A stretch of 64,000 nucleotides of DNA. Source: Lichenibacterium dinghuense. GTDB taxonomy: Bacteria > Pseudomonadota > Alphaproteobacteria > Rhizobiales > Beijerinckiaceae. The notes under the pieces were generated by a model. That model was not told where the DNA came from and searched no databases. It saw only the letters and a list, made by a program, of their open reading frames with translations. Positions within the stretch are counted from its first letter, which is position 1; each line of letters opens with the position of its first letter. Below are positions 24,499-60,554 of this stretch, one piece after another. A program made the position numbers and the translations under genes. The DNA is taken from assembly GCF_021730615.1 (NCBI RefSeq), contig NZ_JAJLMN010000001.1, forward strand, positions 1,860,501 to 1,924,500, written 5' to 3'.

Positions 24499-25089
24499 TC
24501 AGCTCACCTTGCTCAGCGCCTCCGCGGCCTTCTTGGGGTCCTCGAGGTCGGGATTGAACGACTCGACGAAGTTGCCGCGCCCGTCCATCAGGTAGACCAC
24601 GCCCGTGTGGTCGACGCTGTAGCCGCCGTCGCCCGTCGGCACCTTCTTGGCGTAGACGCGGTACTCGTGCGCGATCTTGTCCACCGCTGCCTGGCTGCCC
24701 GTCAGCCCGACGATGCGCGGATCGAAGCTCGACAGGTAGTCCTTCATCACCGCGGGCGTGTCGCGCTCGGGGTCGAGCGTGACGAAGAGGGCCCGCACGC
24801 GCTTGTCGGGCCCGAGCGCCGTGAGCGTCTGCGAGATGGCGTCGAGCGTGGTCGGGCACACGTCCGGGCAGTGCGTGTAGCCGAAGAACACCAGCGTGGG
24901 CTCGCCGGCGAAGCTCGCCTCCGTCACCGGCCGGCCGTCGCCGTCGACCAGCGCGAAGGGGCCGCCGATGCCGCTCGCGGCCGGCCCCGGCGCGCCGGCG
25001 TGCTGCACCACCAGCGCGCCGAGGATCACCAGGATGCCCAGCGCCGCGCCGAGCAGCGGCAGGAGCGTGCGGCGGGACGGCATCGGCAT
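24499..25089 (-). CDS. SCO1/SenC family copper chaperone/thiol protein
   Basis: 196 residues. One N-terminal membrane anchor (LLPLLGAALGILVILGALVV) is followed by a thioredoxin-like domain. The Cu-binding motif is FGYTHCPDVCPTTL, and the distal His is in YSVDHTGVVYLMD. SCO proteins deliver copper to the CuA site of cytochrome c oxidase or act as thiol reductases in the periplasm. It is divergent from the rhodopsin-like gene. Start at 25089 gives a standard membrane anchor. Confidence 0.9.
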   Translation of the reverse strand: MPMPSRRTLLPLLGAALGILVILGALVVQHAGAPGPAASGIGGPFALVDGDGRPVTEASFAGEPTLVFFGYTHCPDVCPTTLDAISQTLTALGPDKRVRALFVTLDPERDTPAVMKDYLSSFDPRIVGLTGSQAAVDKIAHEYRVYAKKVPTGDGGYSVDHTGVVYLMDGRGNFVESFNPDLEDPKKAAEALSKVS

Positions 25090-25227
25090 GCAAGGACTCT
25101 CCGGGAGCGCCGCGCGCTCATGGCACGGCTCGGCGGCGAAGGCGAGGCGGGCGGTGCCGGGCCATCCGGTCGGGGGACACATCGCCGCATCGCGGGGCGG
25201 CGCAACCCCTCGTTCTCTCGACGCCGC

Positions 25228-25270
25228 GTCGCGATCGCGCCCCGATACACCCCGATCACGGGATCGCGAC
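25228..25270. promoter_or_regulatory. Inverted repeat between the SCO and rhodopsin-like genes
   Basis: GTCGCGATC (25228-25236) and GATCGCGAC (25262-25270) are exact complements separated by 25 bases, within the 265-base divergent intergenic region. It might be a regulator site or a chance GC-rich repeat. No other element is evident there. Confidence 0.3.
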
Positions 25271-25354
25271 GGAACTTCGACAGAAGCCGCGGGTGGGATC
25301 CATCGGCACGCGCCGGGCCGGCGCGCCCCGACGGCTTCCGCGCGAGGCTCCCCC

Positions 25355-26167
25355 ATGCCCATGATGTTCTGGCTCACCCGATCCACGGCCGACCAGTGGC
25401 TCGGCGTTCTCATGCTGCTCTTCGTCGTCTGGCTGCGGCGCCCCGCCGTGCCGACCCGGACCGCGCGGGTGGTCGCCGCCGGCCCCGTGATCTGCGGCGC
25501 GGCCTACTGCCTGCTCGCTTCGGGCCACGGCTGGGTCTATCTGCCCGTCGCGGACGACCCGACGCTGCTGCGCGACTTCTACCTCGTCCGCTACCTCGAC
25601 TGGATCGTCGTGGTGCCGATCACGCTCTTCGCCGTTCTGTCCATCGCGCTGACCGACAGCGCCGAGCGGGACCGCGAGTGGCTCAAGCTGGTCGGTCCCT
25701 GCACGGGCATGACGGTGTCGGCCGCGCTCTACGCCTTCGCGTGGGACCCGGTCATCAAGACGCTGCTCTACGTCGTCTTCTTCGGCTTCTCGATCGTGCT
25801 CGCGCTGGGCGTCGGGCGGATCTTCCGGGAGCAGGCCGAGGCCGACAATGTGCACTTCAAGAAGCTGCGGCGCGACATGCGCTTCCTCGCCGGGCTGTGG
25901 ACCTGCTACCACGTCACCCTGCTGCTCGGCAGCGACGGGCTGCGCTGGTTCCTGCCCTCCGTCACCACGGCCAACTTCGAGAACCTCGATTTCGCGCTGA
26001 CGGTCGCCTACCCGTTCGTGGCGCTGAGCCGCGTCGGCCGCACGCGGGAGGCCGAGGAGAAGGCGCGCCACCACGCCGAGACGCTAGAAACCGGCCCCGG
26101 CACAATCATGCTGCGGCCGAGCCACGGCAGGCTCGGCCGCGGCCGGCCGCGCGCCACGCCGGCCTGA
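25355..26167 (+). CDS. Microbial rhodopsin homologue lacking the retinal-binding lysine
   Basis: 270 residues with seven hydrophobic helices. The helix C signature RYLDWIVVVPITL (R79, Y80, D82, W83, P88) matches RYxDWxxTTP of bacteriorhodopsin, with the counterion Asp kept. The proton-donor position is Ala93. Helix F reads LWTCYHVTLLLGSDG (W182, Y185), matching LWSAYPVVWLIGSEG. In helix G, NLDFALTVAYP aligns with VLDVSAKVGFG: the second counterion Asp (D212) is kept, but the Schiff-base Lys is Thr216. It therefore cannot bind retinal covalently in the usual way. No carotenoid cleavage gene is nearby. The C-terminus is Arg-rich. Divergent from an SCO gene. Role unknown: possibly a sensor, scaffold, or a binder of a non-covalent ligand. 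Confidence 0.85.
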   Translation: MPMMFWLTRSTADQWLGVLMLLFVVWLRRPAVPTRTARVVAAGPVICGAAYCLLASGHGWVYLPVADDPTLLRDFYLVRYLDWIVVVPITLFAVLSIALTDSAERDREWLKLVGPCTGMTVSAALYAFAWDPVIKTLLYVVFFGFSIVLALGVGRIFREQAEADNVHFKKLRRDMRFLAGLWTCYHVTLLLGSDGLRWFLPSVTTANFENLDFALTVAYPFVALSRVGRTREAEEKARHHAETLETGPGTIMLRPSHGRLGRGRPRATPA

Positions 26168-26222
26168 CGGGGCGGCGGCGATCTGCTAACCCGTCCCGGC
26201 CCTCGTGCGCCGGGACCCCGAG

Positions 26223-27110
26223 ATGCCGCCGATCCAAGGTCTGATCGCCTATCCCATCACGCCGAGCGGGCCGGACGGCCGAGTCGACCTCGCGGCCCTG
26301 CGCCGCCTCGTCGCGCCGCTCGCCGCGGCGGGGGTCGACGCCGTCGGCCTGCTCGGCTCGACCGGCTCCTATCCCTACCTGTCGCGCGACGAGCGCCGCC
26401 GCGCGCTCGACGCCGCGCTGGCGGAGGCCGGCGCCCGCGTGCCGGTGCTGGTCGGCGTCGGAGCCCTGCGCACCGACGAGGCGACCCGCCTCGCCGAGGA
26501 CGCGCGGGCGGCCGGCGCCGCGGCCGGGCTGCTCGCGCCCGTGTCCTACACGCCGCTCACGGACGACGAGGTGTTCGAGCACTTCCGCGCCGTGGCGCGC
26601 TCAGGCCTACCGCTCGCGGTCTACGACAACCCGGCGACCACCCACTTCGCCTTCACGCCGGGCCTCGTCGGCCGCGTCGCCCGGATCGACGGCGTCGTGG
26701 CGGTGAAGACCGGCGCGCCGGCCCCGGACGGCGTGGCGGCGAACCTCGCCGCGCTGCGCGCCGCCGTGCCGGACGGCTTCTCGGTCGGCTACAGCGTCGA
26801 CTGGCACGCCACGGAGGGCCTGCTGGCGGGGGCTGACGCCTGGCACGGCGTCGCGGCCGGCCTGTTCCCGGCGCGCTGCCTCGCCATAGCGCGCGCCGCG
26901 CGGGCCGGCGACGCCGCGGAGGCGCGCCGCCTCGACGCCGCCATGCGCCCGCTGTGGGACCTGTTCCGGGCGCACACCAGCCTGCGCACCGCCTACGCGG
27001 CCGCGGAGGCGCTGGGGATCTGCCGCGCCGAGCCGCCCCGGCCGGTGCTGCCGCTGCCGCGCGAGGTCCGCGACCGCGTGGCCGCCGTCGCCGAAGCCTT
27101 GGCGGCCTGA
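26223..27110 (+). CDS. Dihydrodipicolinate synthase (DapA) family aldolase/lyase
   Basis: 295 residues, a (beta/alpha)8 class I aldolase. GLLGSTGSYPYLSRDERRR fits the substrate-binding loop, YDNPATT holds the conserved Tyr, and VVAVKTGAP holds the Schiff-base Lys. The GTTGE-type loop of true DapA is altered to GSTGSYPYL, so it is more likely a catabolic or keto-acid lyase of the family than lysine biosynthesis. It is 21 bases upstream of a large membrane protein gene and probably co-transcribed. Confidence 0.8.
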   Translation: MPPIQGLIAYPITPSGPDGRVDLAALRRLVAPLAAAGVDAVGLLGSTGSYPYLSRDERRRALDAALAEAGARVPVLVGVGALRTDEATRLAEDARAAGAAAGLLAPVSYTPLTDDEVFEHFRAVARSGLPLAVYDNPATTHFAFTPGLVGRVARIDGVVAVKTGAPAPDGVAANLAALRAAVPDGFSVGYSVDWHATEGLLAGADAWHGVAAGLFPARCLAIARAARAGDAAEARRLDAAMRPLWDLFRAHTSLRTAYAAAEALGICRAEPPRPVLPLPREVRDRVAAVAEALAA

Positions 27111-56152: not shown

Positions 56153-57058
56153 TCACCCCCCGGGCGGCGGAGCCTCCGCCAGCAGCCCGTCGCGCCGCGC
56201 GGCGTCGAGGAGGGCGTCGGCGACCAGCGGCGGCTTCTCCTCGTGGGCGAGGTGGCCGACGCCCTTCAGCGCCACCACCTCGGCCGTGGGCAGGATCTTC
56301 CTGACGGCGGCGGCCGTGGCGGGCGGCACGGCGCGGTCGGTGGCAGCCGTCACCAGCGTCAGCGGCACGGGCAGGCGGGAAAGGTCGCGGGCGAGGCCGT
56401 CGAGGTCCCAATGCGTCATCATGCCGAGCGCCGCCGCGACGTGGCCGGGGTTGCCCATCAGCGCCGCGTATTGGCGCACGCCGTCGCGGTCGATGCGCGA
56501 GCCCATGTTGCCGATGAGGCGCTTCACCGATTCCTCCCCGGCCAGGAACGCGAAGACGCGCGGCGCGATCGGGTTGGCGTAGAGCGCGCGGGCGAGGCCG
56601 GGCGCGACGCGGCCGGTGAGGCCGTCGAAGGGCAGGAGCGCGCCGTTGAGGCTGACGATGCGCTTCGGCCGGAACTCCGGCGCGTCGAGCGCGGTGCGGC
56701 ACAGCACCGCCGCGCCGGCCGAGTGGCCGGCCGCCATCTCGGGCGCGAAGCCGGTGGCGCCGAGCAGCGCGCGCAGGAGGTCGCGCATCACCGGCAGCGA
56801 CAGCCGGCCGCCCGGCGGCATCTCCGTGAAGGCGTGGCCCGGCAGGTCGGGGATCAGCAGCGAGAAATGCGGGGCCAACAGCGGCGCCAACGCCCGGAAC
56901 GAGTGGGTCGAGGCCGCGGTGCCGTGCAGCAGCAGCAGGCGCGGCCCCTGCCCCATCTCCTGCACGTGCCAGCGGATGCCGCCGGCGCGCAGGAAGCGGC
57001 TGTGCTCCCGGTTGGGCCAGGCGCGGCCGTCGGTGTCCCAGTCCAGCCTGGCGCTCAT
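56153..57058 (-). CDS. bchO: Alpha/beta hydrolase BchO, magnesium-chelatase-associated
   Basis: 301 residues. LLLLHGTAASTHSFRALAPL is the oxyanion region, AAGHSAGAAVLCR carries the nucleophile Ser, and GVGHLAHEEKP the catalytic His. The WHVQEMGQGPRLLLLHGTA region and position downstream of bchD identify BchO, whose precise role in bacteriochlorophyll synthesis is unsettled. ATG 57058 overlaps the preceding stop by four bases (ATGA). Confidence 0.9.
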   Translation of the reverse strand: MSARLDWDTDGRAWPNREHSRFLRAGGIRWHVQEMGQGPRLLLLHGTAASTHSFRALAPLLAPHFSLLIPDLPGHAFTEMPPGGRLSLPVMRDLLRALLGATGFAPEMAAGHSAGAAVLCRTALDAPEFRPKRIVSLNGALLPFDGLTGRVAPGLARALYANPIAPRVFAFLAGEESVKRLIGNMGSRIDRDGVRQYAALMGNPGHVAAALGMMTHWDLDGLARDLSRLPVPLTLVTAATDRAVPPATAAAVRKILPTAEVVALKGVGHLAHEEKPPLVADALLDAARRDGLLAEAPPPGG

Positions 57059-57744
57059 GGGGTCCTCGGTGGTTCCGCGGCGGACTTCACGGCGCGGGCG
57101 ATGCCGCGCGCGTCCGCCATGGGGAGCGGGAGATAGGTCGCGCCCATCTCGGCGGCGAGGCGCGCCGCGGCGGGGCCGGGGCGCGGCGAGGTGTCGATCA
57201 CGAGGCACGCCACCCCGGCCGCGCGCAGGAGCCGCGCCGCCGCGTGGGCTTCGTCGGCCGCGCGGGCGCGGTCCGCGGAGCCGTCGCGGGCGACGTTGCC
57301 GCGCCCGTCCGTCAGCAGCGCCACCACGGCGCGGCGCCCGTCGCGCGCCGCCGCGGCGGCGAGGTCGGCCGCGGCGGCGAGGCCGGCCGCGAGCGGCGTG
57401 GCGCCGCCGCCGGGCAGGCTCGCGAGCTCGCGCTTGGCGCGAGCGGGCGAGCGGGTCGGCGGCAGCAGCAGCTCGGCGGCGCGGCCCCGGAAGCCGATCA
57501 AGGCGACGTCGTCGCGCCGCACGTAGCATTCCGCGAGCAGCAGCTCGACGGCCCCCTTGGCCTCGGCGAGCCGGCCCATCGCGGCCGAGCCCGAGGCGTC
57601 GACGGCGAAGATCGTGGTGGTGCGCTGCCGGTCGCGGCGGCGCGCGACGCGGAAGTCGTCGCGGCGGATGCGGAGCGGCTCCGCAGGCGACGCGCGGCCC
57701 CGCATCGCCTGCCAGGGCGCGGCGGCGCGCAGCGTCGCCATCAC
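57055..57744 (-). CDS. bchD: Magnesium chelatase subunit D, C-terminal part (VWA domain), separated from its N-terminal part by a frame change
   Basis: 229 residues. FAVDASGSAAMGRLAEAKGA holds the MIDAS motif DxSxS, and LLTDGRGN gives a later Asp. This is the integrin-like domain of BchD that contacts BchI and BchH. The upstream linker in this frame reads GRVAPGEPGRGARLD, as expected for BchD, so the coding sequence continues to about 57835 without a start. A GTG at 57744 overlaps the N-terminal fragment's stop (GTGA). Either the gene is mutated by one base or it is expressed as two coupled polypeptides. Confidence 0.8.
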   Translation of the reverse strand: MMATLRAAAPWQAMRGRASPAEPLRIRRDDFRVARRRDRQRTTTIFAVDASGSAAMGRLAEAKGAVELLLAECYVRRDDVALIGFRGRAAELLLPPTRSPARAKRELASLPGGGATPLAAGLAAAADLAAAAARDGRRAVVALLTDGRGNVARDGSADRARAADEAHAAARLLRAAGVACLVIDTSPRPGPAAARLAAEMGATYLPLPMADARGIARAVKSAAEPPRTP

Positions 57745-58832
57745 GTCGAGCCGCGCGCCGCGGCCGGGCTCGCCCGGCGCGACCCGGCCGGCCGGCCGCG
57801 CGACCCCGCCGCCGCGGCGCCGCGCCGCGCGCCGGAGGCGCCGGCCCGCGCCGGTGAAAGCCGGCCGGCCAGCAGGGCCGCCAGCACGTCCGCCGGCAGC
57901 GCCGCCGCGGCGGCCGCGACCGCGAGGTCGTCGAGCGCCCCCGCGGGCCGCTCGGCGTCGCCCCCGCCGTCGGCAGCGTCGCCGGTGGCATCGCCGGCCG
58001 CGTCCGGCGGCGCGTCGGGCTCGGCCGCGGTCTCCTCGGGCGCGGGCGCGACGGGGGCCCGCGTGGCGCGGGGGCCGAGCACGAGGCGGGACGCCGCCGA
58101 CACGTCGGCGGGCCCGACGTCCGTTCGGCCATCCAGGGCCGCAGAAGCGCGGGCGACGCGCATCGCCAGGAGCGGCGCCCGCAGCCCGGCGACGCCGAGC
58201 GCTTCCGCGGCCGCGCAGAAGGCCTCGGCCACCTCGGCGCCGGCCGCCACGCGCACCAGCCGGGCGCGCGCCGCCGCGACCGCCTCGGGCTCGGGCGGCA
58301 TGGGCCCGCAGTCGCGGTGGCCGACCTCCGACAGGTCGAGCCGCATCGCGACGCGGTCGAGCAGACCCGCGGGCGCGCCCTCGTCGGGGCCGCGGCCGTC
58401 GTCGAGCAGCACGGGCCCGAGGCGCGCCTCGGCCTGCGCCGCGATGCCGTCGCGCTCGACCCGGACGAGGCCGGTGTCGAGCGCCGCGCCGAGGTGGGAC
58501 GCCGCGGCGGGATCGAGCCGCTCCGCCGCGGCGACGAGGAGCACGCCGCCGTCGGCCTCTGCGAGGAGGCCGCGTGAGGCCACGAGGCGGCCGCTCCCCA
58601 GCGTCGCGGCGAGGTCGAGGCCGCCGAGCAGCCGAGCCTCGGGCGTGCCGGCCGGCAGGCGGCGCCAGGGCGTGCCGGGGGCGAGGTGCCCCCGGAGCCC
58701 GGCGAGCCAGCCGTCGCGGGCCGGGCCGGGCGGCCCGCGCAGCGCGATGCCGAGCGCGGGGTCGACGGCCATCAGCCGCGCCGCCAGGCAGGCGTCGGCC
58801 CAGCGGTCGCGCGGGGCCGGGCCCCCGGTCAC
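57741..58832 (-). CDS. bchD: Magnesium chelatase subunit D, N-terminal part (AAA-like domain)
   Basis: 363 residues. It has an AAA-type fold without a Walker A (ALRGPPGPARDGW), as in BchD, then LLAEADGGVLLVAAAERLDP and an acidic/Pro-rich linker (residues 265-310). The reading frame changes near 57800-57840 in a dense GC run. The last 30 residues (RPAGSRRASP) are out of frame, and the stop overlaps the C-terminal fragment's GTG. Start at 58832 overlaps bchI by four bases. The subunit inserts Mg2+ into protoporphyrin IX with BchI and BchH. Confidence 0.8.
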   Translation of the reverse strand: MTGGPAPRDRWADACLAARLMAVDPALGIALRGPPGPARDGWLAGLRGHLAPGTPWRRLPAGTPEARLLGGLDLAATLGSGRLVASRGLLAEADGGVLLVAAAERLDPAAASHLGAALDTGLVRVERDGIAAQAEARLGPVLLDDGRGPDEGAPAGLLDRVAMRLDLSEVGHRDCGPMPPEPEAVAAARARLVRVAAGAEVAEAFCAAAEALGVAGLRAPLLAMRVARASAALDGRTDVGPADVSAASRLVLGPRATRAPVAPAPEETAAEPDAPPDAAGDATGDAADGGGDAERPAGALDDLAVAAAAAALPADVLAALLAGRLSPARAGASGARRGAAAAGSRGRPAGSRRASPAAARGST

Positions 58833-59884
58833 GCCGGCACGAGCGCGGGGGCGCCGACCGAGGCCGGCAGCACCTCCTCGACGGCGCGGTCCACGCGGGC
58901 GGCCGAGCCCACCGCGTCCAGCGGGTCGCGGCGCAGGCGGTGGCGCAGCGCGAGCGGGGCGACGCGGCGCAGGTGCGCCTCCGCCACGGCCCGGTCGCCG
59001 TCGAGGGCCGCGAGGGCGCGGGCGGCGCGCAGCAGGGTGAGCTCGCCGCGCAGCCCGTCGGTGCCGAGCGCCACGCCGAGCCGCGCCGCGGCCTCCAGGG
59101 TCGCGCGGGGGGCGTCGACCGCGGGGAGGCGCTGGCGCGCCTCGGCCAGGGTGGCGCGCAGGTCCGCGTCGCGCCCGGCCCAGTCCCTGGCGAAGCCGGC
59201 GCGGTCGGCGTCGAAGCGGTCGCGCCGCACGACGATCTCGACGCGGGTGGGGATGTCGGACGGCGTGCGGATCTCGACCGACAGGCCGAAGCGGTCGAGG
59301 AGCTGCGGGCGCAGCTCGCCCTCCTCGGGGTTGCAGGAGCCCACCAGCACGAAGCGCGCGGGATGGCGGACGCTGAGCCCCTCGCGCTCGACCACGTTCT
59401 CGCCCGAGGCCGCGACGTCGAGCAGCAGGTCGACGATGTGGTCTTCCAGGAGGTTGACCTCGTCGACGTAGAGGAAGCCGCGGTTGGCGCGGGCGAGCAG
59501 CCCCGGCTGGAAGCGCGCCTCGCCGCTCACCAGCGCGCGCTCGATGTCGAGCGCGCCGGCGACGCGGTCCTCGGTGGCGCCGAGGGGCAGGTCCACCACC
59601 GGCACGGCGGCCTCGCGGGCGGGGAGCGGGCCGGCGTGACGCGCTTCCGCGCAGGCCGCGCAGTGCGGGGCGTCCTCGGCGGGGTCGCAGCCGTAGGGGC
59701 AGCCCTCCACCACGGCGATGCGCGGCAGCACGGCCGGCAGGCCCCGCACGGCGGTCGACTTGCCGGTGCCGCGGTCGCCCAGCACCAGCACGCCGCCGAG
59801 CGCCGGCTCGACCGCCGCCAGGGTCAGGGCCAGCTTCATCTCGTCCTGGCCGACGATGGCTGTGAAGGGAAAGGGGACGCTCAT
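58829..59884 (-). CDS. bchI: Magnesium chelatase ATPase subunit I
   Basis: 351 residues, an AAA+ ATPase. Walker A is GDRGTGKSTAVRGL, Walker B NRGFLYVDEVNLL, and VGSCNPEEGELRPQLLDRFG is the sensor and arginine finger region. VEGCPYGCDPA and PHCAAC are Cys-rich elements seen in BchI. I chose ATG 59884; upstream in-frame residues are low complexity. First gene of the bchI-bchD-bchO operon, all joined by four-base overlaps. It implies bacteriochlorophyll synthesis and aerobic anoxygenic phototrophy if the other bch genes exist. Confidence 0.95.
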   Translation of the reverse strand: MSVPFPFTAIVGQDEMKLALTLAAVEPALGGVLVLGDRGTGKSTAVRGLPAVLPRIAVVEGCPYGCDPAEDAPHCAACAEARHAGPLPAREAAVPVVDLPLGATEDRVAGALDIERALVSGEARFQPGLLARANRGFLYVDEVNLLEDHIVDLLLDVAASGENVVEREGLSVRHPARFVLVGSCNPEEGELRPQLLDRFGLSVEIRTPSDIPTRVEIVVRRDRFDADRAGFARDWAGRDADLRATLAEARQRLPAVDAPRATLEAAARLGVALGTDGLRGELTLLRAARALAALDGDRAVAEAHLRRVAPLALRHRLRRDPLDAVGSAARVDRAVEEVLPASVGAPALVPA

Positions 59885-60554
59885 GCGCGGGAGCTTAAGG
59901 GCCGGGCCGCGCGAGCGCCAGCCGCCCCGCGCCGGCCGCCGATGCTTGGGGACGTCGGGCCGGCCGGGCCGAACTTTTTCCAAGCTCGTCCGTCGGGTCG
60001 GCAGCCTTCGTACCAGTCGTCAGGGACGCTGACGCATATCTGACGGATCACGCCGCACGCGCGGCGGCGCGCGTTCGCGCTGGCCGAGGGTCAGGAGTCC
60101 TGACCCTCGGTATCGGATGTCGGATCGATCCCATGATCCACGACACCGGTTACGCCTCTCCTCAGGGCGGCGCATGACGCGCCCACCCGCGGGCGGACCG
60201 GGACGGTCGCAACACAGACGCTGAAGCGCGACACGGTGGAGCCGGGCGAGGCTACGACGTCCAGCCAGCGCCTGACGATCTCGGACGACCAGAGCTCCGA
60301 GAAGGCCGGCCTGCGCGGCGGCTCGCGGCTCGAAGACGCCTCCTGCGTGAAAGGATCGCGGCCTGCGACCACGAGCGCACCCCCGAGCAGGCGGGTGACG
60401 CCGGGCTCGGCTGCGGAGGCGGTCGACCCCGGTGACGCGGCTGGAGAAGCACCGCTATCACGGCCGCGAGGTCCAGGCCTTGTCGGCCTGAAGTCCGCTC
60501 GCCTCCCGGCAAGGGCCGCCATCGGGCGGCGTCCCTGCCGGGTCCGGGGTTGCG
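59885..60554. other. Gene-free 670-base stretch between bchI and the tad genes
   Basis: No credible gene. The left part should hold the bchI promoter; I found no TGT-N12-ACA PpsR-type site. It contains the 27-base palindrome at 60084-60110. A weak shadow of coding sequence on the minus strand (about 60150-60480) may be a decayed gene, but no family is recognisable. Confidence 0.5.
60084..60110. promoter_or_regulatory. 27-base near-perfect palindrome
   Basis: CCGAGGGTCAGGA, one base, then TCCTGACCCTCGG: 13-base arms with a single central base. It lies 200 bases upstream of bchI and 445 bases beyond the tad unit. No T-run follows. It could be an operator, a recombination site or a hairpin terminator. 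Confidence 0.4.

What the first reader, a model, noticed from the sequence alone, without database searches (positions are those of the whole stretch)
25355..26167. Microbial rhodopsin homologue without the retinal-binding lysine
Helix C (R79-Y80-x-D82-W83, P88), helix F (W182, Y185, LLGSDG) and helix G Asp212 align with bacteriorhodopsin, but the Schiff-base Lys is Thr216 and the proton donor is Ala93. The counterions remain while the chromophore anchor is gone. Lysine-less opsin homologues have been noted in several bacteria and fungi, but their role is unclear. It is divergent from an SCO copper gene, in a genome that also has bacteriochlorophyll genes. Possible roles are a sensor with a non-covalent ligand, a partner of respiratory or photosynthetic complexes, or a lipid/terpenoid binder.
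Basis: partly seen in the sequence, partly recalled or inferred. Interest (0 to 1): 0.85.

Follow-up and report, generated by a model that had tools for sequence, protein, structure and literature searches.

The report
Rhodopsin-like protein lacking its retinal anchor
A bacterium with photosynthesis genes carries a gene for a rhodopsin-shaped membrane protein that has lost the amino acid that holds the light-absorbing retinal, together with most of the retinal pocket, so it very probably does something other than respond to light; such proteins are already known, but this one is an isolated and very divergent example.

The parts
25355..26167 (+). Lysine-less opsin (P0001), 270 aa, seven transmembrane helices A 3-27, B 34-55, C 77-98, D 102-128, E 132-163, F 165-191, G 201-245
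26000..26002 (+). codon ACG, Thr216 at the position of the Schiff-base lysine
25988..25990 (+). codon of Asp212, retained counter-ion residue
25910..25912 (+). codon of His186, in place of the retinal-pocket proline (25 of 25 relatives have Pro)
25151..26227 (.). stretch with no aligned counterpart at the same place in genus mate G002 (about 131 bp there); by eye the true right edge may be near 26180
25125..25139 (.). left copy of a 15-nt imperfect direct repeat (13 of 15) near the edge of the extra stretch; may be chance
26167..26181 (.). right copy of the same 15-nt imperfect direct repeat; may be chance
24499..25089 (-). SCO1/SenC protein (PF02630, E 4.9e-51), neighbour that stands without the opsin in G002
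26205..27110 (+). DapA-like protein (PF00701), neighbour that stands without the opsin in G002

Best explanation
It is a retinal-independent opsin-related protein (Rh-noK type), probably gained as a single gene. Shown: opsin family match and a seven-helix model, no retinal lysine, most retinal-pocket positions replaced, counter-ion network intact, no match to PF15461 (Blh/Brp) or PF03055 (RPE65) and no second PF01036 gene in the genome, and an occupied versus empty site within the genus. Inferred: retinal does not bind. The space is partly taken by bulky residues (F142, F143 of helix E). The retained outer charge cluster (Y51, R79, D82, Y185, D212), with the new His186, acts as a protonation-, ion- or small-ligand-dependent switch that changes helix packing, and the protein acts as a stand-alone membrane sensor or regulator of an unlinked partner. 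I put about 0.95 on 'no covalent retinal', about 0.85 on 'no light function' and about 0.3 on the switch mechanism.
For: Fold and family. Lysine loss and no substitute lysine. Of 29 columns at least 90% conserved in 25 lysine-bearing BR-type representatives, the network columns are kept 8 of 8, the pocket columns 1 of 9 (network against pocket, Fisher p 0.0004) and the other columns 7 of 12. In leave-one-out controls 24 of the 25 representatives have a residue seen elsewhere at 14-15 of 15 pocket positions (NpSRII 9 of 15); P0001 has 4 of 15. No second PF01036 gene; no PF15461 match while 5 of 5 genus mates have one (that of G001 is partial, at a contig end); no PF03055 match. Empty site in G002. 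Haloarchaeal group B opsin-related proteins likewise keep the Tyr and Arg of this network and lose the pocket (PMC4915679, parts 1-2 of 8 read).
Against: No orthologue was found, so selection on the protein cannot be measured. No transducer or other partner was recognised beside it. The pocket and network residue lists are recalled knowledge of bacteriorhodopsin, not a tool result, and were drawn up by me. Pocket against the other conserved columns is not significant (p 0.067), nor is network against the others (p 0.055). One pocket position (BR 145) depends on a one-residue gap in helix E: it is Ser in the alignment but would be a kept Phe in that, giving 5 of 15. The AlphaFold alignment held 16 true rhodopsins, which helps the fold, and a single-sequence control could not be run. 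Some bacteria make retinal without known genes (PMC7734400, abstract).
Confidence: 0.6

Rival explanations
1. It is a decaying relic: an opsin acquired without the retinal pathway, no longer selected for light function and drifting.
For: Present in 1 of 6 genus genomes; very long branch, 4.01 changes per column; 75 of 227 aligned columns hold a residue not seen in 25 relatives; no partner recognised beside it.
Against: The frame is intact, codon usage is native, seven helices model well, and the losses fall on the pocket while the network is fully kept, which drift alone would not favour.
Confidence: 0.2
2. It is a photoreceptor that holds retinal or a carotenoid without a covalent bond, using the retained counter-ions.
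For: The counter-ion network is complete; the genome has a lycopene cyclase match and so may hold cyclic carotenoids; retinal can be made by unknown routes (PMC7734400, abstract).
Against: 11 of 15 pocket positions carry residues unseen in 25 lysine-bearing relatives, including S141F, C142F and P186H; no PF15461 or PF03055 match.
Confidence: 0.08
3. It is a partner or assembly factor for respiratory (SCO, copper) or photosynthetic complexes, as its neighbours suggest.
For: It is divergent from an SCO1/SenC gene and the genome has reaction-centre genes.
Against: The same SCO-DapA pair exists in G002 without the opsin; G001 and G002 have reaction-centre genes and no such opsin.
Confidence: 0.07
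4. It modulates a light-driven rhodopsin by forming mixed oligomers, as proposed for betaproteobacterial Rh-noK.
For: Such tandem pairs are described (PMC10308929, section 15).
Against: No second PF01036 match in this genome (99% complete).
Confidence: 0.02

Closest known systems
Opsin-related proteins (ORPs) of haloarchaea, group B (Becker et al. 2016, PMC4915679, parts 1-2 of 8 and found passages read)
   Same: Type 1 opsin homologue, no Schiff-base lysine, retinal pocket lost, Tyr (BR Y57) and Arg (BR R82) kept; 15 of 32 group B members have no transducer beside them; ORP genomes without canonical opsins lack crtY and brp.
   Different: Group B has Leu or another hydrophobic residue at 216, and 17 of 32 have a transducer beside them; this one has Thr, no transducer recognised beside it, lies in an alphaproteobacterium, and its genome keeps a lycopene cyclase match.
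Rh-noK of betaproteobacteria (Yamauchi et al. 2019, not read; as cited in passages of PMC7714340 and PMC10308929)
   Same: Bacterial rhodopsin homologue without the lysine.
   Different: Those are reported in tandem with a proteorhodopsin, some with retinal genes, and to work when the lysine is put back; this genome has no second PF01036 gene and no PF15461 match, and the pocket itself is changed.
Flotillin-associated rhodopsins, freshwater lysine-less clades (PMC10308929, passages and section 15 read)
   Same: Lysine-less bacterial opsins; Thr is among the replacements reported there.
   Different: Those are proteorhodopsin-like and sit beside a flotillin gene; P0001 has none in the window, and a tree joining it to the flotillin-linked lysine-less opsins found here is rejected (p 0.00056).
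Methylobacterium-type rhodopsins (D85, T89, G96 motif; the name DTG is recalled)
   Same: Nearest lysine-bearing relatives (27-29% identity) and the favoured place in the tree.
   Different: They keep Lys216 and the pocket; placement inside that group is not firm (AU p 0.23 and 0.062 for trees that keep P0001 out).

Membership tests
Microbial (type 1) rhodopsin, PF01036 | profile match over the curated cut-off | tested here: met
   54.5 bits against a 24.6 cut-off
Microbial (type 1) rhodopsin, PF01036 | seven-helix opsin fold | tested here: met
Retinal-binding rhodopsin (photoactive) | lysine at BR position 216 | tested here: not met
   Thr216; no mid-membrane lysine
Retinal-binding rhodopsin (photoactive) | conserved retinal pocket | tested here: not met
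   4 of 15 pocket positions (5 with another gap placing in helix E) hold a residue seen in 25 lysine-bearing relatives (position list recalled)
Rh-noK / opsin-related proteins | type 1 opsin homologue without the lysine | tested here: met
Rh-noK / opsin-related proteins | does not bind retinal when expressed | not testable with these tools
   needs purified protein
Haloarchaeal ORP clade (Becker et al.) | branches with the haloarchaeal ORPs | not tested
Flotillin-associated rhodopsins | flotillin gene next to the opsin | tested here: not met
   tblastn with the flotillin of L103 finds no match in the window at E 0.001
Flotillin-associated rhodopsins | branches with the proteorhodopsin-like group | tested here: not met
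   AU p 0.00056 against P0001 with L006, L030, L031, L032; the FArhodopsins of the paper itself were not in the tree

The most novel reading that the evidence does not exclude
The emptied retinal site has been rebuilt into a buried charge or cation site: His186 in place of the pocket proline, Glu209, Asp82, Asp212 and Arg79 lie in the membrane-spanning helices C, F and G of the model, making a light-free proton- or metal-responsive seven-helix sensor or carrier out of a bacterial rhodopsin.
Probability: 0.1. Interest if true: 0.75.

Novelty: new member of a known kind. Interest (0 to 1): 0.4.

Why it matters
About a tenth of microbial rhodopsin genes are said to lack the lysine (about 600 of 5,558, as cited in PMC7714340), and what they do in bacteria is open. 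This case has no light-driven partner, no match to a known retinal-forming enzyme family and a neighbourhood that stands without it in a relative, so any phenotype on deletion would bear directly on what an opsin fold does without light. The intact counter-ion network beside a changed pocket suggests which part of the fold such a function may use.

Tried and rejected
Rejected: lysine in another register; sequencing error at one codon (the pocket differs at many positions); functional link to SCO or DapA (empty site); common origin with the flotillin-linked lysine-less group.

Led nowhere or limited: single-protein scan of genome contigs (no relative confirmed). P0001 searches of 297 genomes of the order and 385 of the class gave no relative beyond the own gene; the weak hit L034 lies in transporter-like frames and is taken as chance. 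The phylum search of 398 genomes gave three distant lysine-bearing opsins (L113-L115), a short broken frame, L116, dropped, and L034 again. Plasmid search: two Methylobacterium records; H1 was read and has the lysine (L042), H2 was not read. Of 35 PF01036 matches, 32 were read; G368:C192, G121:C153 and G252:C9 were not. The 43 loci all have the lysine, but they were found with two short patterns and confirmed at about 25-30% identity, so more divergent relatives could be missed. Before the column counts I dropped 11 rows: four lysine-less (L006, L030-L032) and seven lysine-bearing of other rhodopsin kinds (L007, L011, L025-L029). Metagenome contigs were not searchable. Foldseek search never ran; only the VIA-align look ran, which shows fold, not function. 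The 15-nt repeat may be chance. In some searches the SCO query was given in a wrong frame; one search is the corrected family result, and the empty site rests. The species and genus were not identified; a guess at Salinarimonas led only to a paper search that settled nothing.

Full report

The missing anchor. At BR position 216 the protein has Thr; its five lysines lie at 111, 135, 169, 170 and 236, none mid-membrane. I compared it with 25 lysine-bearing BR-type representatives (under 75% identity to each other, chosen from 69 rows). Eleven rows were left out first: four lysine-less (L006, L030-L032) and seven lysine-bearing of other rhodopsin kinds (L007, L011, L025-L029). Of 29 columns conserved in at least 90% of the representatives it keeps 16. 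The eight network columns (Y57, R82, Y83, D85, W86, W182, Y185, D212) are all kept; of nine conserved pocket columns one is kept (M118) and eight are changed: M20Q, T89V, T90V, L93T, D115C, S141F, P186H, K216T. Of the other 12 conserved columns 7 are kept; the losses there include positions 53 and 119, which also line the wider pocket. Network against pocket gives Fisher p 0.0004; pocket against the others gives p 0.067 and network against the others p 0.055. At 15 pocket positions it has a residue seen in those relatives at 4; 24 of the relatives themselves score 14 or 15 of 15, and NpSRII scores 9. Position 145 depends on a gap in helix E (Ser; Phe, as in most relatives, in the alignment), so the figure could be 5 of 15. 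The position lists are my recalled knowledge of bacteriorhodopsin. So this is not a point loss of the lysine: much of the retinal site has been replaced while the outer charge network remains.

The genome. The genome (6.1 Mb, 99% complete) has no other PF01036 match. It has no PF15461 (Blh/Brp) match, whereas 5 of 5 genus mates do (the match of G001 is partial, at a contig end), and no PF03055 match. It does have a strong lycopene cyclase match, two PF00124 reaction-centre genes at 4.63 Mb, and Mg-chelatase-type genes at 57055-59983 of the window. Absence of Blh is not proof that retinal is absent: one actinobacterium without known genes makes it (PMC7734400, abstract and outline seen).

The neighbourhood. 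The opsin lies between a divergent SCO1/SenC gene (PF02630) and a DapA-like gene (PF00701). In genus mate G002 the solute-binding protein, SCO and DapA genes stand in the same order with 83-85% DNA identity on both sides, but about 131 bp stand in place of window 25151-26227 and no opsin is present. A 15-nt imperfect direct repeat lies near the two edges but may be chance. None of the five genus mates has a P0001-like gene: four have lysine-bearing rhodopsins and one (G001) a different lysine-less one. A gain in this lineage is therefore more likely than several losses, though the direction is not proven. The neighbours are not evidence of function.

Relatives and descent. In 397 genomes of the family, 33 have a PF01036 match; of 35 matches I read 32, and 27 of these have Lys216; the other five are P0001 (Thr), L006 and L030 (Arg), L031 and L032 (Leu). 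P0001 searches in 297 genomes of the order and 385 of the class found no opsin relative, and in 398 of the phylum three distant lysine-bearing opsins. These are samples: each group was drawn from a larger one. A scan of genome contigs gave 43 relatives at 25-30% identity, 43 of 43 with the lysine. The tree puts P0001 among Methylobacterium-type rhodopsins on a very long branch (4.01); trees that keep it out of that group are not rejected (AU p 0.23 and 0.062), but a tree that joins it to the second lysine-less group is (p 0.00056). The loss of the lysine here thus looks like a separate event from that group's.

How it most likely works. Covalent retinal binding is excluded by the missing lysine as far as sequence can say; non-covalent binding is unlikely given the pocket. 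With no rhodopsin partner in the genome, no transducer recognised beside it and a neighbourhood that stands without it in G002, I take it as a stand-alone retinal-independent membrane protein whose retained charge network responds to protons, ions or a small ligand. That last step is inference, at about 0.3. A drifting relic is the main rival (0.2).

Known or new. Lysine-less type 1 opsins are described: Becker et al. 2016 (PMC4915679; parts 1 and 2 of 8 and found passages read) report 48 in haloarchaea, two fungal groups and six singletons, with Tyr and Arg of this network kept in group B; PMC7714340 (found passages) cites about 600 of 5,558 genes as Rh-noK; PMC10308929 (found passages and section 15) describes lysine-less flotillin-associated rhodopsins in freshwater. 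P0001 is a new, isolated member of that kind.

Noticed in passing. Lysine-less opsins of a second, proteorhodopsin-like kind lie next to a flotillin gene in the same order. Of 397 genomes searched with a four-row lysine-less profile, 27 have a match. Fourteen of the 27 loci have a flotillin match beside the opsin, and 12 of these 14 lack Lys216 (8 Arg, 4 Leu, counting L117, which is the same gene as L030); the 13 without a flotillin match in the fetched stretch all keep it. With L006, L031 and L032 from the family search, whose flotillins match PF15975, 15 of 17 lack the lysine, and 15 of these 15 have Gly at the Asp85 position. The profile was built from lysine-less rows, which may favour finding such genes. 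PMC10308929 says that the contigs holding its freshwater sequences were short, which hampered classification; these genomes may be the kind of host they come from. A search for flotillin, rhodopsin and Rhizobiales together found no paper, and two papers in the held library use the FArhodopsin name.

Noticed in passing
L006 (L102), L030 (L103, L117), L031 (L104), L032 (L105), L118-L125, L127-L129: A second, unrelated lysine-less opsin group beside flotillin genes in the same bacterial order: 15 of 17 flotillin-linked opsins lack Lys216 (9 Arg, 6 Leu) and 15 of these 15 have Gly at the Asp85 position. In L102-L105 the pair sits beside sugar-type ABC transporter, IclR-like and dehydrogenase-like genes (names by eye, not tested).
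   Followed up: partly
L126, L130: Two flotillin-linked opsins that keep Lys216 and Asp85: possible early branches before the loss. The match of L130 holds one TAG stop.
   Followed up: no
window 57055-59983 (-): Mg-chelatase-type genes (BchI/BchD-like; PF01078, AAA lid and VWA domains), consistent with bacteriochlorophyll synthesis.
   Followed up: no
L088: A rhodopsin contig filed under a Bifidobacterium breve metagenome bin groups with Solirubrobacterales, probably a binning error.
   Followed up: no
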